DNA from: Rheinheimera sp. 1928-s
GTDB taxonomy: Bacteria > Pseudomonadota > Gammaproteobacteria > Enterobacterales > Alteromonadaceae
Direction: 5' to 3'
Length of the DNA stretch: 64,000 bases
Assembly (NCBI RefSeq): GCF_029269265.1
Contig: NZ_JARIXP010000003.1
Coordinates: forward strand, 498,641-562,640
How positions within the stretch are numbered: position 1 is the stretch's first letter; every line of letters begins with the position of its first letter. The notes under the pieces are model-generated. The model was not told the DNA's origin. It saw only the letters and a program-made list of their open reading frames with translations, and ran no database searches. A program made the translations under genes and the position numbers. This document shows, in pieces, positions 6,775 to 40,706 of the stretch.

Positions 6775-6786
6775 AGCAATAACCAT

Positions 6787-12674: not shown

Positions 12675-12686
12675 CATAAACTCCTG

Positions 12687-17748: not shown

Positions 17749-17814
17749 TGTGATAGTCCTGATGTTGTAGTTGTACATTTAGCTTTTATAGGCTGATAGT
17801 CACGCCTTTCATCA

Positions 17815-18305: not shown

Positions 18306-18392
18306 ATATTCAGACCAGTTTTATTTCACTTGAATCGATAGCGACATCTGTTAAAGTTACAACTGGTTAAAAAATGGAAGAATAATTAACAG

Positions 18393-20546: not shown

Positions 20547-20679
20547 TACTTATCTTTCTTAAAGGGCTGTAGCTATTGCATGCAGCCACACATCCTGGGC
20601 TTTTTAGTGTCTAATTGTGATTGTTGTGTCGTTTAACGATACCTGGTGACAAGCCAGTAGAAAAGCCTAGCATAGGGTA

Positions 20680-23786: not shown

Positions 23787-23794
23787 TTCAATCC

Positions 23795-25024
23795 TTATTG
23801 AGTCAATTTTAGTTGCGCAACAGAGTTTTCAATCTGAAGGTCACTGACAATAATACGGTCACCGGGCGCCAAGCCCGATATCACTTCGATTTGCTGACCA
23901 GAGGCCTTGCCAAACTGCACAGGCACCTTAGTTGCAACTTGAAAAGTATCTACCTTAAATAACTCTATTTCCGCATCCTCAGCCACTCCAACTGGCCGGT
24001 CGACAAAGTTTACCTGCCCACGGCTTTGTCCACGGATCCGGGCATCCACCATCTGCATAGGGCGGATATCCGCACTTAAATTTTCCGGTAATAGAATATC
24101 TACCTGAACTGCACCATCTACGACCACCGGATCAATCCGCAATACCTGCCCGGTCACAATGCCATGCCGGGTATCCACTTCGGCACCAGCTCCTGGCTGT
24201 AATAAACGTACTTGCATTTGTGGTACTTTCACTTCCGCGATAAGCGGCGATAAGCTGCCAACCAGTGCCAGTTCTTCACCAATATTTACACTCTGTCCCA
24301 AACTGACAGGTAAGCGTTGTAACACGCCAGCAAGCCCTGCTCGCACCACAAGCAGCTGCTGTTGGTAAGTGGCATTACTAAACTCAGCTTCAGCTTGTTG
24401 AATTTCTTCTTGCAGGATCAGCAAATGTTCCTGATGCACTTCTTGCAAGGTATCAAACTTTTGTTGCTCTAATTGGTAACGTTCTTTCAGTTGCTCAGCT
24501 TTGGCTCTACTGCGTCTGGCATCCATTGCCGAAATAATACCTGCGTCAGCCAGCGGCGCTTCAGCCTCGACTTGTAGCCCAGCAAGTTCAGCTTCAGATT
24601 TAAATTCGGACAAACGTGAACGCTGATCCAATAGTTCGCGTTGCTGTTCCAATGACAGTTTACGACCGTTGGTTTTTTTATTGTGAACATTGGCCATAGC
24701 CTGTTGCACAGCTATTTCCAGTGTCGGGTTTTTTAACGTCAGAATAATGCTATCAGGCTCAACGACCGCACCAGGGCGCAACTTGATTTCATCCACCGTC
24801 GCTGCGCTGCTGGCAGTGATCATACGTTGGTTCTGCGACTGCAAAATGCCATAGCCAGTAACCCTTTGGGTAAAGTCGCCGCTTTGTACTGTAGCAATGC
24901 TGACAGACGACAAACTCATGTATTGCATGCCTCCAGCAAAACCAATACTCCAACCGCTGATTAAAAGCAGTACCGATATCAGCCCAATGGCACTATAAAC
25001 CAGTGTGCTCAGATTTTTTTTCAT
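23795..25024 (-). CDS. Periplasmic adaptor, MacA/RND-like (HlyD family)
   Basis: A 409-residue adaptor anchored by one N-terminal helix (about 10-30). A lipoyl-like domain half follows (SAATVDEIKLRPGAVV), then a long coiled coil (about 100-220, rich in Glu, Gln and Leu), the returning lipoyl half (VVRAGLAGVLQRLPVSLGQSV) and beta-barrel and membrane-proximal domains (SGLAPGDRIIVSD). It would link the inner membrane permease to an outer membrane channel; no TolC gene is in the window. It starts 14 bases after the C39 exporter gene. Confidence 0.87.
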   Translation of the reverse strand: MKKNLSTLVYSAIGLISVLLLISGWSIGFAGGMQYMSLSSVSIATVQSGDFTQRVTGYGILQSQNQRMITASSAATVDEIKLRPGAVVEPDSIILTLKNPTLEIAVQQAMANVHNKKTNGRKLSLEQQRELLDQRSRLSEFKSEAELAGLQVEAEAPLADAGIISAMDARRSRAKAEQLKERYQLEQQKFDTLQEVHQEHLLILQEEIQQAEAEFSNATYQQQLLVVRAGLAGVLQRLPVSLGQSVNIGEELALVGSLSPLIAEVKVPQMQVRLLQPGAGAEVDTRHGIVTGQVLRIDPVVVDGAVQVDILLPENLSADIRPMQMVDARIRGQSRGQVNFVDRPVGVAEDAEIELFKVDTFQVATKVPVQFGKASGQQIEVISGLAPGDRIIVSDLQIENSVAQLKLTQ

Positions 25025-25038
25025 AATTCATCCTATCT

Positions 25039-27144
25039 TCATGCTCTTGCCATAGTGGCAATCAACTCGGTTAAATCAATAACCCGATCTGCCGCCGCAA
25101 TAGTCTCTTTGCGGTGCGCAACACTGATACGCGTCATGTTTTTTTGTTTCAGGTACTGATTTACACGTTGTTCGCTCACGCTATCCAGATGGCTAGTAGC
25201 TTCATCCAAGAATAAAATTCTGGGTTGGGTATAAAATGCACGAGCCAACAGGATGCGCTGTTTTTGCCCGCCAGATAGCGCACTTCCCAGATCCCCCACC
25301 TGAGTATGTAAGCCCATGGGCATAGCCTGTATTTCATCCCAGATTGCAGCACCTTTAAGAGCTTCTTTCACTAACTCAAGATTGGGGGAAGGCTCAAAAA
25401 AAGTGATGTTTTCCAGTAAAGAACCGTTGAGCAGTTGGTCATTTTGCATCACTGTTGCACAGCATTGGCGAAATTGGCGGAACCCTAATGATTTAACTGG
25501 CATGCCATCCAGCAACAAGTCGCCTTGCTGTGGCTGTATTAATCCAGTCATGATTTTTAACAGTGTGGATTTACCTAAACCTGAGCGCCCAATTATCGCA
25601 ACGGACTCACCAGCCTCCACCCTAAAACTGAGCGCCTGATACAGCCAGGGGGTACTGTCGCTGTAACGAAAATGCAGATTTCGCACTTCCAGAGCACCAA
25701 TTATCTGTTCTGATTTCAGCGCTACTCTGACTTGATCCTGTTCCGGCACCTGCATAACGATATCGGACATACGACGCAAATAGGTGCCCGCAATCCGAAA
25801 ACGGAAGATGTTATCAACTAAAGACTGGGCACTATCAGCAAATTGCTGGCGGTAGGCCAAATAGGCCAGAAACATACCCAGGCTAAGCGCTCCTTCAATA
25901 ATAAAAGAGGCGCTAATCATCACAATAATCAAATATTCAATTCGGCCAAGTGCGTTCTGGGTAACATCACTGGCAATGGTGACTTTCTCTCGTTGGATAC
26001 TGGAATTTAGTGTATCGGCATAAAGGTTCATCCAACTTGATAGACGGTTATTTTCTTTCGCAAAGCTTTTTATCGGCATAATGGCCCGAATAGTTTCAAT
26101 AAAATGGCTATTTTCCTTGGCGTGTTTACTAAGCTGCTGCTCCAGGTGCTCATTTTCTTTGTTGGTCAGGAAAAATCTAATCAAATACAGTGCAACCAGA
26201 AAGCCAACCGAAACCAGTGCGAGAGTCTTGTTGTAGTAAAACATGATGGTCAGAGTTGTGATGCTCAATAGTCCATCGACTATAGCCGTAATAAAGCCTC
26301 TGCTAATCATGCGCTGAACTTCATTAAATGCTTCGAATCTGGACTTGATATCCCCTACATGGCGACTTTCAAAAAAACTGAGCGGCAAATGCAAAAGATG
26401 GCGTTGAATATTGGCTTTGACCTGAAAGCTCAGGTTCTTATCCAAATACATTATGGCGGCCGAACGAATAACCTGGGCCAACACAGACAACATCAACACC
26501 AATGAAAAACCGATAAAAACCGACCAGAGCATACTGGTTTGGCCTGAGTTAATCCCTTTATCTATAACAACCCGAATGTAATAGGGAGATATCAGTAATA
26601 ACCCCTGCAACAACAGCGCAATGACCAGAATTTTTCCGAGCGATGCCCACAAGCCATCCACTTTACCTATAAAGTGGCGCAGCGGTATACGAATCCGTTC
26701 ATCTTTGCGCGCAAAATCACTCGATGGGACCAGTTCAATGACTATACCAGTGAAGGATTCAGAGACCTGATTCCAATCCAGATTTAAGCGTCCTTTTGCC
26801 GGATCATGAATAGTGATCCCTTTGCTGCTCACTTTCGCAAGCGTGACAAAGTGATTAAAGTTCCAGTGCAGAATTGCCGGCTTTTTGACTTTTGCCAGTT
26901 GCCCGAGATCAAGTTTCAGTACTCGTGCAGACAGGCCTAATTCATCGGCAATATTAACGATTTGTTTTACCGTAACCCCATGTAAACCAGCTGGGTATTT
27001 CTGCCGCATAGCGAGCATATTCGTTTTAAATCCATGGTAGCAAGCCACCATGGCAATACAGGTAATTCCACACTCAGCCACTTCACTTTGCAGATAAACT
27101 GGCAGTTGCTGGCTTCTGAATTGAATATAATCAGAAATAAGCAT
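25039..27144 (-). CDS. Peptidase-containing ABC exporter (C39 type, bacteriocin exporter)
   Basis: A 701-residue inner membrane exporter that would cut peptides after a double glycine and export the core. An N-terminal C39 peptidase domain (about 10-140) has a complete triad: Cys25 in EVAECGITC, His98 in FNHFVTLAKV and Asp114 in TIHDPAKG, with Gln19 as the oxyanion residue. Six membrane helices follow (about 165-450), then an ATPase with Walker A GRSGLGKST, signature LSGGQKQR and Walker B ILFLDEATSHLD. The length matches CvaB-type exporters. The neighbouring genes encode two leader peptides that end in Gly-Gly, its natural substrates. Two bases separate it from the adaptor gene. Confidence 0.95.
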   Translation of the reverse strand: MLISDYIQFRSQQLPVYLQSEVAECGITCIAMVACYHGFKTNMLAMRQKYPAGLHGVTVKQIVNIADELGLSARVLKLDLGQLAKVKKPAILHWNFNHFVTLAKVSSKGITIHDPAKGRLNLDWNQVSESFTGIVIELVPSSDFARKDERIRIPLRHFIGKVDGLWASLGKILVIALLLQGLLLISPYYIRVVIDKGINSGQTSMLWSVFIGFSLVLMLSVLAQVIRSAAIMYLDKNLSFQVKANIQRHLLHLPLSFFESRHVGDIKSRFEAFNEVQRMISRGFITAIVDGLLSITTLTIMFYYNKTLALVSVGFLVALYLIRFFLTNKENEHLEQQLSKHAKENSHFIETIRAIMPIKSFAKENNRLSSWMNLYADTLNSSIQREKVTIASDVTQNALGRIEYLIIVMISASFIIEGALSLGMFLAYLAYRQQFADSAQSLVDNIFRFRIAGTYLRRMSDIVMQVPEQDQVRVALKSEQIIGALEVRNLHFRYSDSTPWLYQALSFRVEAGESVAIIGRSGLGKSTLLKIMTGLIQPQQGDLLLDGMPVKSLGFRQFRQCCATVMQNDQLLNGSLLENITFFEPSPNLELVKEALKGAAIWDEIQAMPMGLHTQVGDLGSALSGGQKQRILLARAFYTQPRILFLDEATSHLDSVSEQRVNQYLKQKNMTRISVAHRKETIAAADRVIDLTELIATMARA

Positions 27145-27146
27145 AA

Positions 27147-27851
27147 CTAGCCCTCCTTGATCAGTGCAAAGAAGTTATTACGCTTCACATTGAGCTCAAG
27201 CCGAACGTCTGCGGATGGATGAAGCACGCTAGGCTCATAAGGTAGCTGAAGCTGTATCCCCACATTAATTCTGCCTTGCTGAAAAGGTCCGATAACAGAG
27301 TGAACTTTTCCCCTGGCCCACAGTGACCCGGCCCGCAGATTTACAACTTGCCCGGGTTGTATCTGATTAGGCTTAGTTCCTGTTAACGAGAAAAAAAACA
27401 AATGATCGTCATTAATTCGCAATACTTTGGCAATGGTTTGAAAAGCCAGGGCAGTAGAGCCTGAGTTCACCATCGCAAAGTAGGTACCAGACTCACTACT
27501 TTTTAACAAATCAACTTGCTCAAGCTGGCTTTTAGAATCGAAAGAGCGTACTTGCACTATCACTTGTTCACGATTTATGCGACTGCCATCCATATTCAAA
27601 TGACGTTCCACAACCACAGGTACAGGAGAAACAATAGGAAAATAGTTTGATTCATGAGCTTCCAAGTTTAACTGCTCACGACTGACAAAGGGAAAGACCA
27701 AAGCGAAAAAAATCAGCAGACCAAAAGCAATAAACATAATGACTATCGACTTATCCAGCATATGTGACTGCTGAATAACAGATTTGCCAAACTCTTGCGT
27801 TTGGTACTGATGGCGCAATGCCTCTTTACGAAATAATTTCAGATAAGACAT
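27147..27851 (-). CDS. Very short HlyD-like adaptor for the C39 exporter
   Basis: A 234-residue membrane fusion protein-like subunit. The cytoplasmic N-terminus (LFRKEALRHQYQTQEFGKS) and single helix (about 35-55) match adaptors of C39 exporters (CvaA type). A short periplasmic beta domain follows (SPVPVVVERHLNMDG; PNQIQPGQVVNLRAGSLWARGKV). The long coiled-coil hairpin of normal adaptors (about 400 residues) is missing. The second of two adjacent ATG codons is used because AGAAGG lies six bases before it. The stop of a 47-codon frame overlaps this start (TATGATG). It may not reach an outer membrane channel alone, which could be why a full-length adaptor is also in the operon. Confidence 0.75.
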   Translation of the reverse strand: MSYLKLFRKEALRHQYQTQEFGKSVIQQSHMLDKSIVIMFIAFGLLIFFALVFPFVSREQLNLEAHESNYFPIVSPVPVVVERHLNMDGSRINREQVIVQVRSFDSKSQLEQVDLLKSSESGTYFAMVNSGSTALAFQTIAKVLRINDDHLFFFSLTGTKPNQIQPGQVVNLRAGSLWARGKVHSVIGPFQQGRINVGIQLQLPYEPSVLHPSADVRLELNVKRNNFFALIKEG

Positions 27852-27994
27852 CATAAGCCTTCTAATGCATTCAATACCGCCACGTTTGGGCCAATCATTG
27901 ACATCATCAGCCATTCGGTGACCCACTCAGACATTACAACTGTCTGAGTGCGCAAAGCATTTATGTTGTGACTAAAATTTTGCAGGTTCATCAT
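27851..27994 (-). CDS. Possible 47-residue protein overlapping precursor 1 and the adaptor
   Basis: A frame in a different register begins with two ATG codons inside the last codons of precursor 1 and ends with TGA overlapping the adaptor ATG, so translation could be coupled on both sides. It encodes a hydrophobic C-terminal half (VVMSEWVTEWLMMSMIGPNV). No strong ribosome binding site is seen, and a 10-bp hairpin lies inside it. It may be a coupling peptide, a small membrane protein or chance. Confidence 0.3.
   Translation of the reverse strand: MMNLQNFSHNINALRTQTVVMSEWVTEWLMMSMIGPNVAVLNALEGL
27924..27950 (-). promoter_or_regulatory. Perfect 10-bp hairpin between precursor 1 and exporter genes
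   Basis: CACTCAGACA (27924-27933) and TGTCTGAGTG (27941-27950) form a perfect stem with a 7-base loop, 22 bases after the precursor stop. No T-run follows, so it is more likely an mRNA-protecting or partial attenuation structure than a full terminator. It would allow more precursor than exporter. Confidence 0.6.
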
Positions 27995-28133
27995 TCAGTT
28001 CAATGTAAACATCGTCCGGATTCAGCAACCCCCCCACAATCTTATCCAGCTCATCCAAAGCAGTGACTTCAATGAAGCCTTCTGCTGTGACGGTTGCGGC
28101 TAGAGGCTCGTCCAAAGCTATATAATTTTTCAT
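27972..28133 (-). CDS. Double-glycine leader peptide 1 (candidate RiPP/bacteriocin precursor)
   Basis: A 53-residue peptide. The leader of 35 residues ends FIEVTALDELDKIVGG, matching the C39 consensus at -8 Glu, -7 Leu, -4 Ile and -2/-1 Gly-Gly. The predicted core has 18 residues, LLNPDDVYIELNDEPAKF, acidic with no Cys. The ribosome binding site GAGGTG is six bases before ATG. The sequence AGGTGCAGCATG at its start recurs exactly at the start of the radical SAM gene. It lies just upstream of the adaptor and C39 exporter genes. It could be an unmodified microcin-like peptide, a radical SAM substrate or a signal; no family is recognised. Confidence 0.75.
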   Translation of the reverse strand: MKNYIALDEPLAATVTAEGFIEVTALDELDKIVGGLLNPDDVYIELNDEPAKF

Positions 28134-28241
28134 GCTGCACCTCGTATACAAGTTTTGCCAGTCAGACTATGGATGCGAACCACTAGATATCACCATCACT
28201 GCGCTGTTCTTTTTTTATCACCAAAAAATAACCATGAAAAA

Positions 28242-28874
28242 TCATATAGTATTCATGTAGTTATGAATGAGTTGTTGCCTGTTTGCGCTACCTGTTTTTT
28301 GCATACTGTTAGTCAGATGAAAATTCACAGTCCGCTCTGTAATACTGAGAATCCGGCTGATTTCCCATGAGGTTTTGCCATGAGCAGCCCAGTGAATACA
28401 TTCAAGCTCACGAGGAGTCAGACGTACTTCAACGTCAGATTCTTTTTCATTTAAACGTCGATAAGTGTCGTAAACGTAAGTGGCTACAATTTGCCAAAAC
28501 CAACCCAGTTTCTCGGCAAACTTTGGCTCAACGTTTTGACTGGTAAACCCCAGAATCAGACATGCATGATCTGGACGGGAAGTGACAATAGGGATCAGCA
28601 GGCTGGCTTGTGGCAACGTTACTTTGGTCAATTTCTTTGAGCCGGACCAGGATGGTTTATAACAATGCAGGCATACCTGTTTAAGTGCTGGTAAGGTAAG
28701 CTTTTGTTTGAGTCCATCTGGCAATGATCCTATATAGGCGGTGCTGTCTCGATGAACAATAAAGCAACACCAGTCTATATGAGGCAGTTCTGAGAATTGA
28801 ATCAAATAACGTTCTAACTGGATCAGTGTTTCTACCTGATCCAGTTCAGCCAAAGTTTGCTCAAAGAAACTCAT
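28242..28874 (-). CDS. LuxR-type regulator without a LuxI partner
   Basis: A 210-residue regulator. Residues about 150-205 are a LuxR helix-turn-helix (LTPRELECIHWAAHGKTSWEI, TERTVNFHLTNSMQKTGS). The N-terminal 140 residues resemble a LuxR ligand-binding domain in length, but the Trp/Tyr/Asp acyl-homoserine lactone residues are not clear. No luxI is in the window. The frame extends to 28892, but the ATG at 28874 has GGGAGG six bases upstream and is preferred. It starts 17 bases after the stop of a 42-codon secreted peptide gene, so they form one operon. It probably controls the island. Confidence 0.83.
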   Translation of the reverse strand: MSFFEQTLAELDQVETLIQLERYLIQFSELPHIDWCCFIVHRDSTAYIGSLPDGLKQKLTLPALKQVCLHCYKPSWSGSKKLTKVTLPQASLLIPIVTSRPDHACLILGFTSQNVEPKFAEKLGWFWQIVATYVYDTYRRLNEKESDVEVRLTPRELECIHWAAHGKTSWEISRILSITERTVNFHLTNSMQKTGSANRQQLIHNYMNTI

Positions 28875-28891
28875 AGCGCCTCCCTGAACCA

Positions 28892-29020
28892 TTAATCAAT
28901 TTCACAGCTACTGGTCAATTTACACCAGGACAATGGCGAAACAGTTTCACTCTCAGACTTACTCTCAGCCATCAATGCTGAAGGAAATATGAGTACGAGC
29001 GCAATGATAATAACTTTCAT
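28892..29020 (-). CDS. 42-residue secreted peptide with two cysteines
   Basis: The peptide MKVIIIALVLIFPSALMA is a typical signal sequence with cleavage after ALMA. The mature part, about 24 residues, ends SPLSWCKLTSSCEID with a C-x5-C pair that could form a disulphide loop in the periplasm. AAGGGG lies six bases before the ATG. A possible promoter is TTCAAA and TACTAT about 30-55 bases upstream. It precedes and is probably co-transcribed with the luxR-type gene. It may be a secreted signal, a second product or an immunity peptide. No family is recognised. Confidence 0.65.
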   Translation of the reverse strand: MKVIIIALVLIFPSALMAESKSESETVSPLSWCKLTSSCEID

Positions 29021-29119
29021 GAAATTCCCCTTTAATAGTAGTTAAGTCAGGGAAATTTTGAATGGGAAACCGTGCGGGTGAAATAACGAGAATCTAATTT
29101 TACTGTGGTTAATTTATCA

Positions 29120-31261
29120 CTACTTTATAAGGTAACCGGATAAATCAATGCCACTAAGACTTGTCATTCGTGTCCCTCTACTACTGTAAAGCACACGACT
29201 CCCATTTTGATTAATCGCAAAACGAGGTCGCATTTTTTCGTAAGGAAAACTGGCTTGACGAAACTCGCCACTGACAAAATCCAGTTGATTTAACCACGTA
29301 GATACAAAATCAAAATCGCTCCAAATCAAGGACTGATTTTTGACATACCAGCGACTAATAAATTCGGTATTAATGCTATATCCGAGAGCATGAACCTGAC
29401 GAAACCCGGTGTCTAACTGATGTAACGCACCGTTTTCAGTCACAGCAATAAAGCCATGGCTGTATTCTCTGGCAGACCTATAGCCTATCGCGAGTCTTTT
29501 GCTACGCTGACTAGCACGGTCAAATTGATGCAATTCCCAATCTCCCACGATCAATTGGCCAAAATAGACACTTTGACCATCCGATGAAAACGCAGCCTGG
29601 CTGTCCAGAAGACTTTTCGATGAAGATACGATCTCCACAGAACTTTTGGATACATTCACCACTAGCAGTTGCTCTCCCACATGTAATAACAAGATCCCCT
29701 GTTCAGGATGAATATCCAGTAACTCGAGCTTCTTATGGGTGCTAAAAAGAGTTTCTTTATTACCACTGCTTTGATCATACTTCACCAGCATACGTTTATT
29801 CTGATCACTGACAACTGCATAATAGATATGGTCATGTTCAGCATAACTCATCATGAGCGTCCCACTGACGGCGTTAACAATCCGTCCTTCGGACAATTCA
29901 GGGGTAAGAATCAGCTCACGAAATACTGGCTCAACAGCATCTGAATTACGCAGTAAATACAGTCTGTTATCTGAATTGGCAATTGAGAAATCCGTAATCA
30001 GATCTTCGCCCTGCTCCAACAAAATCTGTTCACTGCCCGACGATAAGCTAACGACACTAAGTTGCTGTTCATCCAGTTTCATCAACGAATTACCGTTCAG
30101 CCATTCCAATCGACCAACACGGGCCTGTGTGGCTTTTGAATACACTGTACGCTGCGATCTTACCTCTTGAATTTCCAGCCAATATTCCTGACCACTGCGC
30201 AAAATAGCACTTGCTAGCCACTGACCATCCGGGGAATGTACTGAATGATAAATGTGATCCAGAGCGCTGCTGCGAGCTTGCACCCGTTCTAAAGTATTTG
30301 ACTGACTTTGCCAGCGGTATAGCATGGCTGTTCCTTGCTCTGCGTCCATTGCATTAATAAACCACTCTCCCTGTTGTTGACCAGGGCTTACCCGGAAAAT
30401 CATGAAAAAGTTGACAAGAGGCTGTTCGCTTACAACGCGCTTATTCTCATCGAGCACTAAAAGATAGACCGAAGAGTTGCCCACCACTTCATCGACAACA
30501 AAAAGTGAGTTGTCATTATTAAACTCCAGCATTGATGGTTGCTGTGCACTGGTAGACAAAAGGTGAATATCTTTGGTTTTGCGGTTTTTCAGATAAATTT
30601 GCCAAGGTTCACTCTGGTTTAAACGACCAATAAAAGCAAGGTATCGCCCATCCGGAGAGACTGTCAGCCCCTTTTTCTCGCCAGATATGGTCGTAATCAC
30701 CTGACTGGGTAGATGCCAAAGCTCAGAAATATCAGATTCAGGTTTTCCTCTTGGAGAAACAAACAATAAGAGAAGGATCAAAACACCAAAAACAACAAAG
30801 CAAGCTATAGTGAGGATTTTGGCGGGCTGAAAAGCAATAGGCTCGAGCTGTTCCGGCCTTGCGGTATAACCACCTGACACTTCAGCCATCCCCTCTATCA
30901 TAGTAGTAGCGATCAACTTCGGATGTTCTGGGCTGACAAAATCCGTATATTCACTGATATAGCAAACCAACTTATAGCCACGTTTTGACAGTGATTTAAT
31001 GTATTTGGGGTCAGCGACATTCGTATCGTCAAATAGGTTTCTGAGTTTTTTGATCGTTCCTCTGACAGCAGTATCACTGACTACACGACCAGACCAGACA
31101 TGTTCATGTAATTCCTGCAGGCTGATGTAACGATCCCGATGCAAATACAAGTAAGCAAGCAGCTCCAATACCTGAGGTTCGGCTTCTAACTCTTTTTCGC
31201 CAGAAAACAAAAAGTTGCTACTGGTATCGAAAATAAACTCACCAAGAATAACCTTAGACAT
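29120..31261 (-). CDS. Second CadC-like membrane-anchored regulator with TolB-type propeller
   Basis: A 713-residue inner membrane regulator. Residues about 5-105 are a winged helix of OmpR/CadC type (LEAEPQVLELLAYLYLHRDR, DTAVRGTIKKLRNLFDD, KYIKSLSKRGYKLV). One membrane helix lies at about 150-172 (TIACFVVFGVLILLLLFVS). The periplasmic part has TolB-like repeats (VSPDGRYLAFIGR, HSPDGQWLASAI, FSSDGQSVYFGQ). It is a distant paralogue of the gene at 18393-20546. It lies between the secreted peptide and S9 hydrolase genes, so it may sense the peptide or envelope stress and control the island. Confidence 0.83.
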   Translation of the reverse strand: MSKVILGEFIFDTSSNFLFSGEKELEAEPQVLELLAYLYLHRDRYISLQELHEHVWSGRVVSDTAVRGTIKKLRNLFDDTNVADPKYIKSLSKRGYKLVCYISEYTDFVSPEHPKLIATTMIEGMAEVSGGYTARPEQLEPIAFQPAKILTIACFVVFGVLILLLLFVSPRGKPESDISELWHLPSQVITTISGEKKGLTVSPDGRYLAFIGRLNQSEPWQIYLKNRKTKDIHLLSTSAQQPSMLEFNNDNSLFVVDEVVGNSSVYLLVLDENKRVVSEQPLVNFFMIFRVSPGQQQGEWFINAMDAEQGTAMLYRWQSQSNTLERVQARSSALDHIYHSVHSPDGQWLASAILRSGQEYWLEIQEVRSQRTVYSKATQARVGRLEWLNGNSLMKLDEQQLSVVSLSSGSEQILLEQGEDLITDFSIANSDNRLYLLRNSDAVEPVFRELILTPELSEGRIVNAVSGTLMMSYAEHDHIYYAVVSDQNKRMLVKYDQSSGNKETLFSTHKKLELLDIHPEQGILLLHVGEQLLVVNVSKSSVEIVSSSKSLLDSQAAFSSDGQSVYFGQLIVGDWELHQFDRASQRSKRLAIGYRSAREYSHGFIAVTENGALHQLDTGFRQVHALGYSINTEFISRWYVKNQSLIWSDFDFVSTWLNQLDFVSGEFRQASFPYEKMRPRFAINQNGSRVLYSSRGTRMTSLSGIDLSGYLIK

Positions 31262-31301
31262 ACACCCAAAATAGCCACAAAAAACCTAATGGCATTATTG
31301 T

Positions 31302-31317
31302 CTGTAAAAACTTACAG
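31302..31317. promoter_or_regulatory. Palindrome before the second CadC-like gene
   Basis: CTGTAAAAACTTACAG has 6-bp inverted ends (CTGTAA / TTACAG) around AAAC. It lies 41 bases before the start codon, and a related TGTAAAAGTTT lies near 31350. It could be an operator for autoregulation. Confidence 0.35.
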
Positions 31318-31469
31318 GGCAAGGGAATTATCCGTAGTAGGTAAAATTGTAAAAGTTTAGTTTATATTCAGAGTTTTACGTCGTTTAGGGCGGTCTGCTA
31401 CATAGCTTAGAAAACGGCGGTGAAACAGAGTAAGGCAAAGGAGTTGCCTGTTTTCTAGCTGATTGCTGG

Positions 31470-33893
31470 TTAGTTAGCTTGTGCACACTGCCGTAACCAA
31501 GCCGACTGAGCTACAAGCATTTGTTGGATGGTTTCTTTATAACGGTAGGCATGCCGTTCTTTATTCAGTAATAACAACTTGGCAGGCACGTGATGCGCTT
31601 GTAATGCCTGAAACATCATTTCAGATTGTAATGGAGCTGTACCAGGGTTTTCATCAGCCAAACCGTGGATCAGCAATACAGGGGTTTTTATCTTATCCGC
31701 ATGGAAAAATGGGGATAGTTGCTGATACAAATCAGGTACCTGCCACAAGGTTCGTTTTTCTCCCTGAAAACCCAAAGGCGTCAGCGATCGATTGTAAGCA
31801 CCACTTCGTGCTATTGCACAGCGAAAATTAGTACGTTCTGTCAGCAAGCTTAAAACACTAAAAGCACCATAAGAGTGTCCCATCAATACCAGCCGGGTAG
31901 TATCAATACGGCCAGTCTGTTCCAGGGTTTTAATCAAAGACGACATGTTCAGTTGCTGCTGCTGCATAAAAGTATCATTTGGTTCTTGCCCGTCCTGGCG
32001 GACTATAGGGATCTGACTTGCATCCACAACCGCATAGCCATCTAGTAGTGCAATCTGAGGTCCTTGCGGATCAAGAAGCTGAAATCCAAAGTGTTGTGAT
32101 GGTTTTGCTTGTTGCTGATGACTATGATACTCACGAGGGTATAGCCAAATCACTGCGGGTAACAACTCATCATTCTGCTTTTTCGGCAGATACAGCTGAC
32201 TGTACAACTGCACACCGTCACCACGTTTAAATTCCAGTAATACAGGCTTTGGCGCTGAAACCAAATCATCGGAATGCCAATCATATAAAGGTTTTTCGTC
32301 GTCGTTGTTATGGTGTATTTGCAAAGATGGAGCTCTCTCAGGCGTCTCGGCAACAAGCATCAGCCATTCTTTCTCGCCCGTTATTCTGAGATAAACGGGT
32401 GTTCTTTGTTGATCAGTGCTGTCGTTTTTAAAAGCAACGCTCTGTTCAGACGCCTTTATGCCTTGCCTGACCACATAAACCCCATCCCCCCAGCGATGCT
32501 GGCCCTCAGCTTGAAAATACACCTCCTGCCGCTGATTACTGATGAGTTCAATTCTTCCATCCGGTAACAACTGGGTAAGCAGATCGCCGGGGAATTCAGC
32601 AAGATTGGTGTAATCGTATTGAGTCAATAGACTTTCTTTCTGCTCTGCTGTGTTAAGTTGCAGGCTCCAGTACCTAAGTTGCTTTTGACCTGCATGAAAA
32701 TCGCTATACACAAGCCGACCTTCCTTTGTCAGATAGAATTGATGTAAACGCCAGTTTGTTTTAAAAAGTTCTGTTGCTCCTTTTGTAAATGGAGCTTCAA
32801 AAGACATCACGGCATCACGATATCTTGCATCAACTTTATTCCCCTGCGGTTCAACGCTCTCCACCCAAATCACTGTAGCAGGTTGATCCGGCCGCCACTG
32901 CACAAGACGAGCGCCTTCGGCGGCAGCATCTGGCTCCCTTGCCCGCTGTCGATCCGTCAGCAGCTTTGGCAAGACTGCTTTTACCTCTCCGGTTAAAATG
33001 TCGACAACCTGATACTCTCGAGCCAACCGATTGATGCGGATCCCAGGTTGTACTTCATCCGCAAGATGCTGAACCAGTAGATACCGCCCATTCGGGGAAA
33101 CACTGATGGCCTCCAATAAAAGCTTTGACGTCAAGGAGCGTACTTCCCCATTTTTATGCAGCAGAACAGCTTGTTGACTCAGCAACGCTTTAAAGTTCTG
33201 TCGGGCTAACTCCGTATCAAGTGTATTTCGATAGATCCGCGTCTGAACTGACTGACTCTCCGAACTTTGCAGCGTAGCAGCTGGCGGTTTTGCTGCATTG
33301 ATAGAAAGCATGCGGCTGTGCCGAAGAATGATGCTCTGGCTATCAGGCATCCATACGATGGAAGGAGAATCTAATTGTCCTGATACCCCAATATCCGACC
33401 AAGGCTCAAGCTTTTGCTGAGATATATCAAAGCGCCAGATATCCAGCACTTTGTCACTCACGCCAATTAAAGCAAAGCTTTCAGAGTCGGGGGCCCAACG
33501 CACATCACGAACTGTCTGCTCTGGCAGTGACAAGTCTTTGCTATGACCGGTACTGATATGAATTAATTGTACTGTGTTGATTAGAGTGTTGCTGGCTTCC
33601 AAGGGTCGATCCAGGTAAAACTCTCGGCCTAAGAACTCTATTCGCTCCGAATTACTTTCGTCGTTAATGGATGGGTACTTGTTACCATTTGCCAGAACAA
33701 GCCACTGTCGATCCGGCGATAACCGCATCAAATCTGGTCCGACACTTTTCATCAGGCGCTGGTAATCAAATAGCAACTGATCTGATGTCTGGCCGGCCTC
33801 TTCTTGCGCTGTTAGAGGCAAGACACTGAGGGCTATACATACAAACAAAATATGGCAGGTAATCATCTGCACATCGGGCCATCTAAGTGGCAT
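31470..33893 (-). CDS. Secreted S9 family (prolyl oligopeptidase-like) hydrolase
   Basis: An 807-residue protein with a signal peptide (about 10-29, ending LTA), a beta-propeller-like region (about 50-520) with repeated DGR motifs (LSPDRQWLVLANG, VSPNGRYLLVQH), and a C-terminal alpha/beta hydrolase. The catalytic Ser is in GHSYGAF (about 674), Asp in GLADENPG (about 747) and His in KERHAYRYKE (about 781). The layout fits the S9C/S9D peptidases. In lasso-peptide clusters an S9 enzyme opens the product; here it may cut, recycle or inactivate the peptide. GGAGG is six bases before the ATG. It is downstream of precursor 2, with a 370-base gap. Confidence 0.88.
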   Translation of the reverse strand: MPLRWPDVQMITCHILFVCIALSVLPLTAQEEAGQTSDQLLFDYQRLMKSVGPDLMRLSPDRQWLVLANGNKYPSINDESNSERIEFLGREFYLDRPLEASNTLINTVQLIHISTGHSKDLSLPEQTVRDVRWAPDSESFALIGVSDKVLDIWRFDISQQKLEPWSDIGVSGQLDSPSIVWMPDSQSIILRHSRMLSINAAKPPAATLQSSESQSVQTRIYRNTLDTELARQNFKALLSQQAVLLHKNGEVRSLTSKLLLEAISVSPNGRYLLVQHLADEVQPGIRINRLAREYQVVDILTGEVKAVLPKLLTDRQRAREPDAAAEGARLVQWRPDQPATVIWVESVEPQGNKVDARYRDAVMSFEAPFTKGATELFKTNWRLHQFYLTKEGRLVYSDFHAGQKQLRYWSLQLNTAEQKESLLTQYDYTNLAEFPGDLLTQLLPDGRIELISNQRQEVYFQAEGQHRWGDGVYVVRQGIKASEQSVAFKNDSTDQQRTPVYLRITGEKEWLMLVAETPERAPSLQIHHNNDDEKPLYDWHSDDLVSAPKPVLLEFKRGDGVQLYSQLYLPKKQNDELLPAVIWLYPREYHSHQQQAKPSQHFGFQLLDPQGPQIALLDGYAVVDASQIPIVRQDGQEPNDTFMQQQQLNMSSLIKTLEQTGRIDTTRLVLMGHSYGAFSVLSLLTERTNFRCAIARSGAYNRSLTPLGFQGEKRTLWQVPDLYQQLSPFFHADKIKTPVLLIHGLADENPGTAPLQSEMMFQALQAHHVPAKLLLLNKERHAYRYKETIQQMLVAQSAWLRQCAQAN

Positions 33894-34263
33894 TTATGCC
33901 TCCAATAACACAGGTCGTTATCTCCAGCTCTAAAGTAGTTCAATGGATACCTGTTCTGGTTATCAGGCCAAACCTCAGCTTGAGCCCCTAGTTTCTTTAA
34001 GTGTTAATGATGCAAAGGACCCATATATTTATCATTGAACGAGGCAGGGCTGCTCGCGCCCTGCCTTTTAACCTGAACCCAGCATAATTAACTCGCTTAA
34101 AAACGAACTATGTTCTGACCGAATACACAAATGTCTTAGGACCAGCTGGTGCTTTGTCTAGCCACAGCGAGCTATAGCCAGACAAAACAACACAGAGAGG
34201 TAAAAAAAGATGCAAATTCAGTGACGCAGCCTATTCCGAATTCAGATTTTCCAGCAAAATGCC
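33894..34263. other. Intergenic region between precursor 2 and the S9 gene
   Basis: About 370 bases without a supported gene. It holds the S9 ribosome binding site, a strong hairpin at 34042-34069 and, on the minus strand, a T7 run at 34200-34210 after precursor 2 with no clear stem before it. TATGTTCTGACC at 34109-34120 resembles the repeats at 36268-36295 before the radical SAM gene. Confidence 0.5.
34042..34069 (+). terminator. Terminator-like hairpin, plus strand
   Basis: AGGCAGGGC (34042-34050) and GCCCTGCCT (34058-34066) form a perfect 9-bp GC-rich stem with a 7-base loop. TTTT follows on the plus strand only. No plus-strand gene ends here, so it may end antisense transcription or act as an mRNA stability element for the S9 transcript. 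Confidence 0.45.
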
Positions 34264-34434
34264 TTACTCAATCTGCTGGTTTTCTTTATAGCTGCCACAA
34301 GCGAAACCGATACATTCTGAATCGTCAGCCTGCTCTGGATTCGTACCACCTGATATTTCATCCAGCAACTCAGGTGAAACCTCATCTGGAGTAGCAGAAG
34401 CTTTCTTTTTAGTCAGATCTTTAAATTCAGTCAT
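34264..34434 (-). CDS. Double-glycine leader peptide 2 (candidate radical SAM-modified RiPP precursor)
   Basis: A 56-residue peptide. The leader of 30 residues ends PDEVSPELLDEISGG, matching the C39 consensus at -12 Val, -11 Ser, -7 Leu, -4 Ile and -2/-1 Gly-Gly. The predicted core of 26 residues begins TNPEQADDSE and contains CIGFACGSYKENQQIE, with two Cys spaced C-x4-C, plus Ser, Tyr and Asn. It is 176 bases downstream of the radical SAM gene on the same strand, so Cys-linked thioether formation or another radical change on the core is likely but unproven. The ATG at 34446 has no ribosome binding site; GAGGTT supports the ATG at 34434. Confidence 0.82.
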   Translation of the reverse strand: MTEFKDLTKKKASATPDEVSPELLDEISGGTNPEQADDSECIGFACGSYKENQQIE

Positions 34435-34610
34435 ATTTAACCTCATAAATAAATTGATACTTGGTTTTTTATTAAACCAGTTGGACCACGTTCCGCAGAA
34501 ACTCTGCGACTTGTCTTTACAACAAGATGTTTAACAACGACTCAGAAAACTATCTGCGTGTTTAACTGAGCCAGATTTTGTTATAGGATTGTTTGTGTCA
34601 TGCAAAAACA
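34435..34610 (-). promoter_or_regulatory. Structured leader between the radical SAM gene and precursor 2
   Basis: This 176-base spacer can fold into CGCAGA / TCTGCG (6 bp, 3-base loop, near 34512-34526) and TGGTTT / AAACCA (near 34461-34478). Such structures may raise precursor mRNA stability or hold its own promoter. No good promoter was identified. Confidence 0.4.
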
Positions 34611-36194
34611 TTACGAAACAACCAGCATATCTTCTCTGGTTTTTATATATGCTTCTGCCACACTGGCTCTGAATCTTTTCCCGTATCCATCACAATAGTT
34701 AGAATGCAAAGTACCGGTCTTTTCTGACGCATAAACGGCACAACCGCCGCCACAATGCAGAGCATAACGACATTGTGAGCAAACAGAATTTGATACAACA
34801 CTTCTTGAGCGCCAATTTTTTTCCTGCTCATTGAAAAACATTAACCCGGCATATTTATCAACAGTACCAATTCGAATGTTTTTATCTCCTGTTTTTTCCC
34901 AACAGGCATAAATGTCCGCAAGTGCATCAAAAAGATACATTCTGTCATGTGCTGCGCAGTAATTAGTCTTAATACCTGAGGATGCTTTCTCTGGATTCTT
35001 AAATATACCTATGGCTTGATTTCTCATTTTGTCGCCATCAACTGAAAACAATGCGGTCTGCGGATGCTGGACGCGCATCGTCTCCATTTCTTTATTTAGC
35101 TTTAATGTAGTCATACATTGCTCTTTATCAGTATTGTCATTAAGAGCATGTATGGGTGCCAGATAAGCACCAAAATTGGCTTTTTCATGCCATTTTTTAG
35201 AATGAATGAAAGAAGATAATTCAGGTAAATCATTAATGTTTCCGTAGTCAACATTGACACGAACATTAATAAAAACCCCTTTTGACAAGGCTAAATCAAT
35301 ATTACTGGCAATTTTAGCGAAACTTCCTGAACCATCCGGATAGATCCGCCTTTTATCATGCTCTTCAGGTTTACCATCTAAAGTAATCTGAATTTCGCTG
35401 ATGCCATCCTTACCTAGCAAATCATGGTAAAACTCAAGTTCAGTGCCGTTGCTTGTTGCTGAAAAGCTGGCCGAACTCAGTGTTTTCGCTTTATCCATAA
35501 TGTAACTAATGATGTCACGGTTCGCTTTTAAAAGCGGCTCACCACCAAAGAACGAGATATGCCTGTGCTGTCTTTCTTCCGATAATTCAAAACCATGTTT
35601 TTCTTCAATCAGCGGCATACTGGCAAAGATACGATCCACTGTTTCCTTATCCATCAACTTCAAGAATTTTTTAAAGCTCGGTTCTTTTCTCATGTGATCC
35701 TGAAAGCAATATGGGCAGCGCAGATTGCAATCATAGGTGGGCATAAAAAGGTAACGAGGCATATTCATAGATGATTTACGCCGCTTTACCTCAACATAAC
35801 GTTTAAAGAAGGCCAACTCCTCATCGCTTGTTCTTTTTGTTAAAAAACCATAGTGCACAAGCTGCTGAAAGGTTTCGTCTGTCGGTTTTTCTGGCTCGCC
35901 CTGGAACTCAAAATCATCTTGCCACTCTCCGTACAACGGGCGAGGCGGGCGCTTAAGTTCAAGTTTCCTTAGGTATGCAGCCACCTTTTTAGATACCAAT
36001 ATTCTATGCCCCAGATAACCATGAACAAGAATCATAGCCTCATCGTTATCCGGCAAGTCGACATAAATAGTGTATTGGCTTGTTCGATGAGCACTCAATG
36101 ATGGACCATATGAAGGCTGTTCCTTTAAAACTGCACCATCAGCCGGCAGATCGTTTTGGTCAGATAATCTAAAAATCTGAATGACATTTTCCAT
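34611..36194 (-). CDS. Radical SAM/SPASM peptide maturase
   Basis: A 527-residue enzyme. The AdoMet cluster motif is CNLRCPYC (Cys156, Cys160, Cys163). FFGGEPLL follows, then a C-terminal SPASM region with clustered Cys (NYCAAHDR, IYACWEKT, SVCSQCRYALHCGGGCAVYA, SNYCDGYG) able to hold two extra iron-sulphur clusters. Residues about 35-125 (YTIYVDLPDNDEAMILVHGY to LVHYGFLTKRTSDEE) look like the N-terminal substrate-recognition part of peptide maturases. It would modify the core of the adjacent precursor 2. The start has GTAGGTGCAGC upstream, also found before precursor 1. The region is AT-richer than core genes, consistent with transfer. The precise chemistry cannot be told from sequence. Confidence 0.9.
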   Translation of the reverse strand: MENVIQIFRLSDQNDLPADGAVLKEQPSYGPSLSAHRTSQYTIYVDLPDNDEAMILVHGYLGHRILVSKKVAAYLRKLELKRPPRPLYGEWQDDFEFQGEPEKPTDETFQQLVHYGFLTKRTSDEELAFFKRYVEVKRRKSSMNMPRYLFMPTYDCNLRCPYCFQDHMRKEPSFKKFLKLMDKETVDRIFASMPLIEEKHGFELSEERQHRHISFFGGEPLLKANRDIISYIMDKAKTLSSASFSATSNGTELEFYHDLLGKDGISEIQITLDGKPEEHDKRRIYPDGSGSFAKIASNIDLALSKGVFINVRVNVDYGNINDLPELSSFIHSKKWHEKANFGAYLAPIHALNDNTDKEQCMTTLKLNKEMETMRVQHPQTALFSVDGDKMRNQAIGIFKNPEKASSGIKTNYCAAHDRMYLFDALADIYACWEKTGDKNIRIGTVDKYAGLMFFNEQEKNWRSRSVVSNSVCSQCRYALHCGGGCAVYASEKTGTLHSNYCDGYGKRFRASVAEAYIKTREDMLVVS

Positions 36195-36617
36195 GCTGCA
36201 CCTACTTGAACTATTTTCTAATACAAGACGGATAGAGTGTTTTGTTTATTAAACAAGTCACTCCGTCCTGACCTTTGCTATATTCTGACCTTTGCCATTT
36301 ACCTAAAAAAACAACACACAGATTTCACATAATCGGCACAAAGTTCCATTAACCACAAGATTTATAGTTTTTCGGTTGATCGTCAACCTGCAAAATATGA
36401 CAGGTAATCGGCTTAGTACCTCCAGGCTCCATTGACTGCGTCCGCTTTCAATACTATCGAGTCGACAATTAGAAAAGTGATGGAGATAGGCTAGGCACTG
36501 TGGATTTAAGCTGCAGCTTTAAAGGATTGGCTTACCTGCTACTTTCTACAGGTTTTGACTTTGGAAAATTTGGTTAGACTGATATTTATGTCTAAATACC
36601 AACAATCCGGAGTCGCC
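36195..36617. promoter_or_regulatory. Divergent promoter region between the radical SAM and glycosyltransferase genes
   Basis: About 420 AT-rich bases with no supported gene. The 11-mer CTGACCTTTGC occurs at 36268-36278 and 36285-36295, 17 bases apart, on the side of the radical SAM gene. This is a candidate operator for one of the island regulators. Confidence 0.5.
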
Positions 36618-37814
36618 ATGAGAATTCTTATTTGTACTTTTGACAGTTTTGGCTTTCTTTACCCGATGATAGGACTGGCCAATAGTTTCAAACGACTCGG
36701 ATATGACATCCATTTTATTGGCAGTAAAAGCATCAAAGAGATTGTTCTTGGACAAGGAATCCGATGGATAGAGCATGATAAAGAAAATAAAGATGCATTT
36801 TTAATTAAACGCTTTGGTGATCTTGAGGATATTTCAAACCAGATCAAGTATGTTGAATATGCAGTTTCAAATTTTAGCTATGATTTAGTTGTAACCTCTC
36901 CTTTATCTTTTGGCACAATTCTGGCGGCTGAAAGATATGGCCTGCGTGTTGTTACTCTTGGTTTTTTTTCATATTTATGGGTCAACGATGTAAATATATT
37001 TAGTCTTCCTAAAAAGATTCATGACCACTGTAAGTGGCGTACGACAGATATGTTTAATACTTATATGAAATCAAGGGCTAGTCTTGGCTTTCAAAAAGTA
37101 AACCATGATTTATCTCGTATTCCGTTTACAGGTGATTTGATGCTTCAGAGAAGCGTTCCTGGTCTAATGAGCAAAATAGGGGGTATACCTGAAAAAACTG
37201 TTGCCTTTGGTTCTTGTATATGGGAACCAGAAGCAGTGAGTGATACGGAAGAAATGTTAGAAAATTGGCTTAACCTTCCTAAGAATAGAGATCGAAAAGT
37301 ATTGTATGTAAATCAAGGACGAACTTTCTATATGAAAGGATTCTGGAGTTTGATCAAGTCAATATTTGGCGCTTCCGACTACTTAGTGATAGCTGATGTG
37401 AACAGGATGGATGGCTTTGTTGGTGAAGTACCAGACAACTTTTTTCTGGCTAACCATATACCCATCAGAGCGGTAGTTTCTCATGCAAGTTTATTTATCT
37501 CAGCTGGGCATACAACGTCAGTCCTTGCCGCACTTGAAAATGCCATTCCCATGCTTTTATTTCCTAGTGGAGGAGAAACAGTAGATAACTCGTTTTATTG
37601 TGAAAAAATTGGAGTGGCTACTGTCTTTAATGAAGACTCTTACAATGAGCAGCAAATCTCTGAGACAGTAGATCGCATTATAAAGGAACAAAAATTCAGC
37701 GATGCCTGTAGACAAATGAGTAATGAATTTGGTCTCTACAAAGGGGATTCTTATCGCTCTGGATTAATAAAATCAGCAGCATTGCGGCTGTCTGGTAATT
37801 TATATGCTCCTTAA
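36618..37814 (+). CDS. UDP-glycosyltransferase-like protein (GT1/MGT type)
   Basis: A 398-residue predicted cytoplasmic glycosyltransferase. Its N-terminal half starts MRILICTFDSFGFLYPMIGL, a typical GT-B first strand. Its C-terminal half has the donor-binding pattern SHASLFISAGHTTSVLAALE, IPMLLFPSGGETVDNSFYCE and KIGVATVF, a variant of the GT1 HGG...P..xEQ..NA motif with SAG in place of HGG. Earlier in-frame ATGs lack ribosome binding sites; CGGAG supports 36618. It could add a sugar to the peptide product or to an unrelated metabolite. It is AT-rich compared with its neighbours and divergent from the radical SAM gene. Confidence 0.8.
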   Translation: MRILICTFDSFGFLYPMIGLANSFKRLGYDIHFIGSKSIKEIVLGQGIRWIEHDKENKDAFLIKRFGDLEDISNQIKYVEYAVSNFSYDLVVTSPLSFGTILAAERYGLRVVTLGFFSYLWVNDVNIFSLPKKIHDHCKWRTTDMFNTYMKSRASLGFQKVNHDLSRIPFTGDLMLQRSVPGLMSKIGGIPEKTVAFGSCIWEPEAVSDTEEMLENWLNLPKNRDRKVLYVNQGRTFYMKGFWSLIKSIFGASDYLVIADVNRMDGFVGEVPDNFFLANHIPIRAVVSHASLFISAGHTTSVLAALENAIPMLLFPSGGETVDNSFYCEKIGVATVFNEDSYNEQQISETVDRIIKEQKFSDACRQMSNEFGLYKGDSYRSGLIKSAALRLSGNLYAP

Positions 37815-37942
37815 CCCTAGACGTAACGGAGAGCTTTATTTTTACAGCGAGTTTTAGAGTCAACCCGCAGGTACTGTGAGGTGACAATTTCAATAGTAAG
37901 TTATGTGCAGATGGCTTCGGCCTTTAGTTAATTTCACCACAT

Positions 37943-37970
37943 AAAAAAGCCACCCGCAGGTGGCTTTTTT
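37943..37970. terminator. Bidirectional terminator after atpC and the glycosyltransferase gene
   Basis: AAAAAAGCCACC and GGTGGCTTTTTT form a 12-bp stem with a CGCA loop, with six A/T at the base on either side. It ends the atp operon from the right and can also end plus-strand transcription from the island. Confidence 0.9.
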
Positions 37971-37986
37971 CTATGCAGTAATCCGC

Positions 37987-38403: not shown

Positions 38404-38428
38404 ATCGCTCTCCTAAAGCTGTAGTTGA

Positions 38429-40706
<2,278 letters not shown>

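What the first reader, a model, noticed from the sequence alone, without database searches (positions are those of the whole stretch)
25039..37814. Candidate undescribed radical SAM peptide (RiPP) system with two double-glycine precursors
Two short genes (27972-28133 and 34264-34434) encode peptides with C39-type Gly-Gly leaders (IVGG and ISGG). In the same island are a C39 exporter with an intact Cys25-His98-Asp114 triad, a radical SAM/SPASM enzyme, a GT1-like glycosyltransferase, a secreted S9 hydrolase and dedicated regulators. Each part is a known family. The combination of one C39 exporter with two leader peptides of unlike cores, a radical SAM enzyme, a glycosyltransferase and an S9 hydrolase matches no cluster I recognise.
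Basis: partly seen in the sequence, partly recalled or inferred. Interest (0 to 1): 0.88.

Follow-up and report, generated by a model that had tools for sequence, protein, structure and literature searches.

The report
Modified-peptide gene island in Rheinheimera
A gene island in an environmental bacterium appears to make, cut in two steps and export a pair of small enzyme-modified peptides; relatives carry the same export and cutting machinery around a different modifying enzyme, which makes it a good test case for how such peptide factories are rebuilt.

Summary
The system is larger: it also has a short HlyD-like adaptor, a MacAB/DarBC-like pump (20680-25024) and a small signal-peptide-bearing gene with a Cys pair (28892-29020). 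A same-genus genome lacks the block of about 20538-37928, so this is a discrete 17.4-kb island beside atpC. The chassis recurs in 16 loci of six Alteromonadales genera. In 11 of the 15 complete loci a different, about 341-aa radical SAM enzyme holds the modifying position; the window's enzyme, precursor 2 and glycosyltransferase look like a derived, replaced cassette. The S9 protein is S9D glutamyl-endopeptidase-like. After Gly-Gly, precursor 2 begins x-[NSD]-P-E and an acidic stretch in 15 of 15 loci, so I infer two-step leader removal as in cytolysin and lichenicidin (C39 cut, then cut after Glu). Chemistry, product and activity are not shown. Eight library searches listed no description. 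Verdict: a real, conserved RiPP-type operon; a new variant of a known kind.

The parts
20538..37928 (.). Whole island, absent as a block from a same-genus genome (G015, L161)
   Evidence: L161 aligns to window 16302-20537 and 37929-38600, with about 80 unaligned bases between; intervals
20680..23088 (-). ADOP/MacB-type permease, 802 aa; proposed self-resistance or second export pump
   Evidence: TIGR03434 411 bits (cut-off 622), DarB 25.7 (cut-off 700); present in 16 of 16 loci
23085..23786 (-). ABC ATPase of the pump, 233 aa
   Evidence: Label read from sequence (Walker A, LSGGQQQR), not scanned with a family library; 16 of 16 loci, 72-100% identity
23795..25024 (-). MacA/DarC-like periplasmic adaptor, 409 aa
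   Evidence: RND_mfp 89.0 bits (cut-off 94.9), DarC 56.3 (cut-off 450); 16 of 16 loci
25039..27144 (-). C39 peptidase-ABC exporter, 701 aa
27147..27854 (-). Short (about 235 aa) membrane protein, HlyD-like adaptor by size, position and one N-terminal hydrophobic segment; the label is inferred
   Evidence: No NCBIfam family, and no Pfam or PHROGs family beyond weak hits (E 0.018 and 0.92); 16 of 16 loci
27972..28133 (-). Precursor 1, GG leader, 18-residue tail
   Evidence: GAGGTG before ATG
28242..28892 (-). LuxR-type (GerE) regulator
   Evidence: PF00196 65.9 bits; 15 of 16 loci, the 16th contig being cut
28892..29020 (-). Small gene, 42 aa, signal-peptide-like start (by eye) and C-x5-C tail
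   Evidence: a like ORF in 15 of 15 CadC-LuxR intervals (13, 2)
29120..31261 (-). CadC-like membrane regulator with beta-propeller repeats, 713 aa
   Evidence: PF00486 45.7, PF07676 26.3 bits
31470..33866 (-). S9D glutamyl-endopeptidase-like protease, 798 aa, signal-like start
34264..34434 (-). Precursor 2, GG leader, 26-residue tail with Cys pair
34611..36194 (-). Radical SAM/SPASM maturase (type A), 527 aa
36618..37814 (+). GT1-like glycosyltransferase, 398 aa, divergent; role uncertain

Best explanation
A two-peptide RiPP operon on a portable chassis. Shown here: the genes, their conservation, the island edges, two alternative radical SAM genes on one chassis, and the S9D character of the protease. 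Inferred: (1) the N-terminal part of the pre2 leader, which differs between type A and type B systems, brings pre2 to its own radical SAM enzyme, which alters the Cys-containing C-terminal part (a Cys-based crosslink is my guess); (2) the shared GG-proximal part of both leaders is read by the common C39 exporter, which cuts after Gly-Gly and passes both peptides through the HlyD-like adaptor and an outer-membrane channel; (3) outside the cytoplasm the dedicated S9D peptidase cuts after Glu and removes the acidic x-[NS]-P-E... propeptide, in the window giving cuts at TNPE|QADDSE|CIGFACGSYKE|NQQIE; (4) the MacAB/DarBC-like pump protects the producer; (5) the CadC-like propeller protein, the small Cys-pair peptide and the LuxR protein switch the operon on. 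The product is most likely an antibacterial peptide pair aimed at close kin. Confidence by step: real RiPP-type operon 0.93; step 2 0.8; cassette replacement 0.85; step 3 0.55; antibacterial use 0.5; glycosylation of the peptide 0.35.
For: Chassis in 16 loci of six genera, 15 of them complete for these genes, with a drop in exporter identity from 67% to 42% in the ranked list. The type A exporters lie among type B exporters (clades at 98/100 and 100/99; type A itself 84/86). Order is rSAM then pre2 in 4 of 4 type A and pre2 then rSAM in 11 of 11 type B loci. Type A pre2 has a different leader N-terminus but the same L-x-E-I-[SA]-G-G-x-N-P-E joint as the GS13 and Alishewanella type B pre2. GC of rSAM, pre2 and GT is 0.403, 0.415 and 0.373, below every other island gene except the 129-base small gene (0.388). 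S9D: CGEP is the best solved match (2.6e-62 for the window, 2.8e-92 for a Pseudoalteromonas homologue); GHSYGAF, W-x-Y-P hinge loop, Asp and His in 15 of 15 rows, the window included; the hinge loop is proposed to shape the Glu pocket of CGEP (PMC12871690, abstract, passages and section 9). In Pseudoalteromonas the 9 of 108 genomes with rSAM at 67% or more are the same 9 with S9D at 50% or more. P-E at +3/+4 after GG in 14 of 14 distinct pre2 tails against a shuffle mean of 0.13; 76 of 98 residues acidic at +4..+10 against 26.9. Precedent: CylA removes GDVQAE and LicP removes NDVNPE after the C39 cut (PMC10885120, passages).
Against: No product, transcript or activity is known. P0005 fits no curated maturase family (the 25 listed of 57 NCBIfam hits are below cut-off except the SPASM domain). 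Close relatives were found only in 4 of 22 genus genomes; 369 class genomes gave none beyond the window's own, 398 phylum genomes one more at 28%. The pre1 tail has no Cys in 6 of 7 Rheinheimera/Alishewanella/Alkalimonas loci, so one enzyme making Cys crosslinks on both is unlikely. The Shewanella pre2 acidic block ends in Asp and its pre1 lacks the Pro. The small Cys-pair gene has dN/dS 1.06 in one of six pairs. S9D may instead degrade the product as immunity, and 87 of 108 Pseudoalteromonas have only another S9D of 25-36%. A leader-binding (RRE) domain of P0005 was not shown: Pfam found none in residues 1-150 and no structure could be predicted.
Confidence: 0.6

Rival explanations
1. The modified peptide is a signal, not a toxin: the island makes a secreted pheromone sensed by the CadC-like propeller protein and/or LuxR, and the pump and S9D tune its level.
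For: CadC-like, LuxR and the small Cys-pair gene sit inside the operon in 15 of 15 complete loci. The same trio sits with an unrelated GG-peptide cluster in G014.
Against: Tails of pre2 vary strongly between species, as expected of weapons, and the MacAB/DarBC-like pump suggests self-protection (inference). The trio beside several GG ORFs in G014 also fits control of bacteriocins.
Confidence: 0.25
2. S9D is the immunity or clearance factor: it destroys stray mature peptide in the periplasm instead of activating it.
For: Its best NCBIfam match is lasso peptide isopeptidase (50.6 bits, far below the cut-off 400). The product contains Glu (window SYKE|N).
Against: The Glu-rich block sits just after the C39 cut in 15 of 15 pre2, and the tails from the first Cys on hold 0-3 acidic residues; two-step activation has close precedents.
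Confidence: 0.3
3. The Cys-bearing product binds a metal (a peptide metallophore), and the pump and CadC-like sensor serve metal handling.
For: Cys-containing short tails.
Against: No receptor or metal transporter gene was recognised in the island; two type B tails, Shewanella and P. rhizosphaerae, have one Cys only.
Confidence: 0.07
4. The GT, radical SAM and pre2 genes are unrelated passengers of the island, and only pre1 is exported.
For: GT is divergent and was not found in the type B stretches; cassette GC is low.
Against: pre2 is kept in 15 of 15 complete loci next to a radical SAM gene of either type, with purifying selection in Rheinheimera.
Confidence: 0.05

Closest known systems
Lichenicidin and cytolysin (two-component class II lanthipeptides with LicT/LicP, CylB/CylA)
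   Same: Two precursors, one C39 exporter that cuts after GG/GS, a secreted serine protease that then removes a short piece ending in Glu (NDVNPE, GDVQAE) (PMC10885120, passages)
   Different: Radical SAM instead of a lanthionine synthetase; S9D instead of a subtilisin-type protease (the S8 class of CylA/LicP is recalled); Gram-negative export with adaptors; S9D role not tested
Thuricin CD (two-component sactipeptide)
   Same: Two precursor peptides plus radical SAM chemistry (PMC12093266, abstract and outline)
   Different: Two cooperating radical SAM enzymes there, one here; Gram-positive host (recalled); crosslink unknown here
Darobactin and dynobactin systems (daropeptide-like)
   Same: Radical SAM RiPP of Gram-negatives with MacB-like pump (recalled); DarC/DarB are among the named matches of the pump and DynA among those of the maturase
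   Different: All those matches far below cut-off; tails lack the recalled W/K/S core pattern; C39 exporter and GG leader here
CteB/SCIFF and PapB ranthipeptide maturases
   Same: Best solved match of P0005 is 5wgg, over residues 130-296 only (E 5e-14; that 5wgg is CteB is recalled); PapB family 122 bits
   Different: Below the PapB cut-off of 340; no Cx3D/E pattern (recalled) in the pre2 tail
Arabidopsis CGEP (S9D glutamyl endopeptidase)
   Same: Long sequence match, motif, triad and hinge loop (PMC12871690)
   Different: Signal-bearing bacterial protein encoded beside precursors; substrate specificity not assayed

Membership tests
RiPP biosynthetic operon | Short precursor with leader and variable tail beside a maturase | tested here: met
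RiPP biosynthetic operon | Post-translational modification of the tail | not testable with these tools
   needs mass spectrometry
C39 (PCAT) double-glycine export | Cys-His-Asp triad in the exporter and GG before the tail in the substrates | tested here: met
   triad invariant in 7 of 7 aligned; GG in 16 of 16 pre1 and 15 of 15 pre2
Radical SAM/SPASM enzyme | CxxxCxxC and SPASM Cys set | tested here: met
   C156-x3-C160-x2-C163; SPASM model above cut-off; further Cys 413, 431, 472, 475, 481, 485, 501
Named maturase families (TIGR04463, CefB, PapB, DynA) | Score above the curated cut-off | tested here: not met
   91-125 bits against cut-offs of 340-600
Radical SAM RiPP maturase with RRE | N-terminal leader-binding domain | tested here: inconclusive
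   No Pfam hit in residues 1-150; structure prediction unavailable
Sactipeptide/ranthipeptide | Cys thioether crosslink | not testable with these tools
   Cys pair present in pre2
S9D glutamyl endopeptidase | GHSYGAF motif, Ser-Asp-His order, W-x-Y-P hinge loop | tested here: met
   15 of 15 rows, marks taken from PMC12871690
S9D glutamyl endopeptidase | Cleavage after Glu | not testable with these tools
   assay needed
Two-component bacteriocin | Two peptides needed for activity | not testable with these tools
   two precursors present; activity unknown
Glycosylated RiPP (glycocin-like) | Sugar on the peptide | not testable with these tools
   GT1-like gene in 4 of 22 genus genomes only

The most novel reading that the evidence does not exclude
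A family of two-peptide RiPPs of Alteromonadales in which a fixed chassis (C39 exporter, S9D Glu-specific activator, pump, regulator trio) accepts exchangeable radical SAM cassettes through a split leader: the outer half matches the enzyme, the inner half plus GG-x-N-P-E matches exporter and activator. The small exported Cys-pair peptide is the sensor ligand or partner of the CadC-like propeller regulator and recurs with other peptide clusters.
Probability: 0.35. Interest if true: 0.75.

Novelty: new variant of a known kind. Interest (0 to 1): 0.57.

Why it matters
If true, a bacterial S9D glutamyl endopeptidase would have a proposed natural substrate (I saw none in the listings), and two-step leader removal of the cytolysin/lichenicidin kind would extend to a Gram-negative radical SAM pathway. 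The natural swap of maturase on one chassis, with change in the outer half of the leader, gives a ready experiment on modular RiPP engineering. Two distantly related radical SAM types acting on related precursors can be compared directly.

Tried and rejected
Other C39 exporters of the genus (about 42% identity) were checked as possible family members and set aside: the five read (L041-L045, of the 24 such matches listed at 39-43%) lie in another conserved locus with different neighbours. The G057 hit of P0005 (33%) lies in a different ABC cluster (L039) and was set aside. Direct repeats at the island ends were looked for and none beyond 9 bp found. An S9 reading as prolyl peptidase (the Pro at +3 of pre2) was considered and dropped for S9D. 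A lasso isopeptidase reading of S9 was dropped: 50.6 bits against a cut-off of 400. The extra 372-aa protein of Pseudoalteromonas gave no family above cut-off. The pre1 profile search of 394 order genomes found only the window genome and G473; I did not check which known carriers were in that sample. The plasmid searches gave only distant rows: 3 records at 26-30% for the radical SAM enzyme, 17 records under 60% for S9. The genome-contig scan used two exact peptide patterns and kept the best 80 of 202, so 14 named loci is a lower bound. Rows dropped before counts: one pre2 tail identical to another was counted once; the Alkalimonas contig (8.9 kb) ends before CadC/LuxR/pre2/rSAM/S9 and is left out of the 15 complete loci. 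In one search the small-peptide ORFs of L063 and L078 were found with a filter that asks for the Cys pair; the other 13 were listed by position alone, among other ORFs, and I picked the one with a signal-like start.
Full report
OBSERVATION. Family scans confirm C39-ABC exporter, radical SAM with SPASM, GT1-like protein, Peptidase_S9, CadC-type and LuxR-type regulators. C25, H98 and D114 of the exporter are invariant in 7 of 7 aligned exporters. Both precursor genes have purine-rich stretches before ATG. Their orthologues in five Rheinheimera genomes look to be under purifying selection: finite dN/dS 0.08-0.26 for pre1 (8 of 10 pairs) and 0.02-0.25 for pre2 (7 of 10 pairs), from few changes. 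The small Cys-pair gene gives 0 to 1.06 over six pairs.

GENUS. Its genus is taken as Rheinheimera because its exporter is 100% identical over the best segment to that of R. soli BD-d46, and the R. soli, A13L and YQF-1 contigs have the lengths of those of G001, G010 and G002.

EXTENT. Genome G015 (L161) of the same genus aligns to window 16302-20537 and to 37929-38600 with about 80 unaligned bases between. Named matches of the pump include DarC and DarB, well below cut-off. In 18 of 22 genus genomes with glmU and atpD on one contig, the interval between them is 22.0, 22.0, 22.1 and 23.0 kb in the four carriers of this island and 0.57-13.1 kb in the other 14 (my subtraction of the coordinates). 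It is a variable site: G014 carries another GG-peptide cluster there.

DISTRIBUTION. The radical SAM gene is in 4 of 22 genus genomes, the window's included, at 97-100% (6 of 60 relatives matched, the other two at 33-36%). Searches of 369 class genomes (E 1e-30) and 398 phylum genomes (E 1e-20) gave none and one more (28%) beyond the window's own. A genome-contig scan with the exporter alignment kept 79 loci; 14 have 67% identity or more, then the list drops to 42% (two exact peptide patterns, so a lower bound). With the window and G590 this makes 16 loci in Rheinheimera, Alishewanella, Alkalimonas, Shewanella, Colwellia and Pseudoalteromonas. Fifteen have exporter, short adaptor, pump trio, S9, CadC-like, LuxR, pre1, pre2 and a radical SAM gene. 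The Alkalimonas contig is cut.

SWAP OF THE MATURASE. Four loci (type A, the window's) have the 527-aa SPASM enzyme plus GT. Eleven (type B) have an enzyme of about 341 aa with 24-32% local identity to it. Type B keeps CxxxCxxC but, judged by its Cys positions, not the full SPASM set; the SPASM model was not among the 25 hits listed of 70 for the two type B enzymes scanned. Order is rSAM then pre2 in 4 of 4 type A loci and pre2 then rSAM in 11 of 11 type B loci. The exporter tree places the type A rows inside clades with type B rows (100/99 and 98/100; type A itself 84/86), so replacement in the Rheinheimera line is the simplest reading. GC of rSAM, pre2 and GT is 0.403, 0.415 and 0.373 against 0.425-0.486 for the other genes of the island, the 129-base small gene (0.388) excepted. 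The outer half of the pre2 leader differs between types, while the inner part (LLDEISGGTNPE in the window, FLEEISGGSNPE in GS13) is shared.

THE S9 PROTEIN. The best solved match is Arabidopsis chloroplast glutamyl endopeptidase, query residues 196-794, E 2.6e-62; the Pseudoalteromonas homologue of L079 matches over 754 residues at 2.8e-92. PMC12871690 (abstract, passages and section 9) gives S9D marks: GGHSYGAFMT, triad S781-D855-H889, and hinge-loop residues W689, Y691, P692 proposed to shape a Glu pocket. All 15 rows, the window's included, keep GHSYGAF, W-x-Y-P, Asp and His. N-termini look like signal sequences by eye; no predictor was run. In the genus, P0007 relatives above 60% identity are in the 5 genomes with the cluster and no other of 22; a sixth genome has another S9D, 44% over part. 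In Pseudoalteromonas, 10 of 108 genomes have a type B-like enzyme, nine at 67% or more and one at 42%. Those nine are the nine with an S9D at 50% or more; 87 further genomes have only a paralogue of 36% or less and 12 none at this threshold.

TWO-STEP CUTTING (inference). After GG, pre2 has P-E at +3/+4 in 14 of 14 distinct tails (shuffle mean 0.13) and acidic residues in 76 of 98 places at +4..+10 (shuffle mean 26.9); none of 10,000 shuffles reached either value. By eye the acidic block ends in Glu in 14 of 15 tails and in Asp in the Shewanella one. In lichenicidin and cytolysin the C39 exporter cuts first and a secreted serine protease then removes NDVNPE or GDVQAE (PMC10885120, passages). 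I infer the same logic here with S9D as second protease. The rival, S9D as immunity factor, stays open.

SMALL PEPTIDE AND REGULATORS. Between the CadC-like gene and LuxR each of the 15 complete loci has a short ORF with a signal-like start and a C-x4-6-C tail (13, 2, the latter with a filter for the Cys pair). The same trio stands beside the unrelated GG-peptide cluster of G014 and in reduced loci of G470 and G503. It was not found beside the exporters of six other genus stretches examined (L162-L167). A control module for some GG-peptide islands is a fair reading; a ligand or partner role of the small peptide is a guess.

LITERATURE. Eight searches of the open library listed no paper whose title or abstract start describes this operon; two searches listed 8 of 148 and 10 of 768. 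Opened: PMC12871690 (abstract, passages, one section), PMC10885120 (passages), PMC12093266 (abstract, outline) and PMC10456417 (passages: a BAGEL4 sactipeptide area without core in one Pseudoalteromonas). PMC9259500, the one paper with Rheinheimera, radical SAM and RiPP, was seen as a listing only. Absence from this library is not absence from print.

VERDICT. Real, conserved and, in what I could search, undescribed; most parts belong to known families, and the combination and the cassette swap are the new features. Chemistry, product and activity remain to be shown.

Noticed in passing
L159 (G014:C8:109900-125800), 1908-13445: At the same atpC-glmU site another GG-peptide cluster: C39 exporter (42%), several short GG ORFs, own CadC-like/Cys-pair peptide/LuxR trio, no match to either radical SAM type.
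   Followed up: partly
window 16483-37987 and the like interval in 18 genus genomes: The glmU-atpD interval is a variable insertion site, 0.57 to 23 kb.
   Followed up: yes
L040 4600-5241: The Rheinheimera GS13 type B cluster has a DsbA-like gene between pre2 and the radical SAM gene; its pre2 tail has four Cys.
   Followed up: no
L075, L076, L078, L079, L081, L062: Six of seven Pseudoalteromonas loci carry an extra 360-376 aa protein with no family above cut-off between pre1 and pre2; in L078 it is split over two frames.
   Followed up: no
L065, L066: G470 and G503 have pre1, short adaptor, CadC-like, Cys-pair peptide and LuxR without a matching radical SAM or C39 gene in the stretch: a reduced or different system.
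   Followed up: no
L067 7275-10544: G654 has a CadC-like gene and a short adaptor near a glmS-like gene but no precursor or exporter match, perhaps a remnant.
   Followed up: no
L075, L076, L078, L079, L062, L063: In these Pseudoalteromonas loci the cluster lies near a glmS-like gene, and in Alishewanella (L061) next to a glmU-like gene: the atp-glmU-glmS region recurs as its site (gene names recalled from the protein starts).
   Followed up: no
L041-L045: A second C39 exporter locus with much the same neighbours in five genus genomes.
   Followed up: no
window 18393-20546: A second CadC/propeller-type regulator gene sits just outside the island and is kept in G015 without the island.
   Followed up: no
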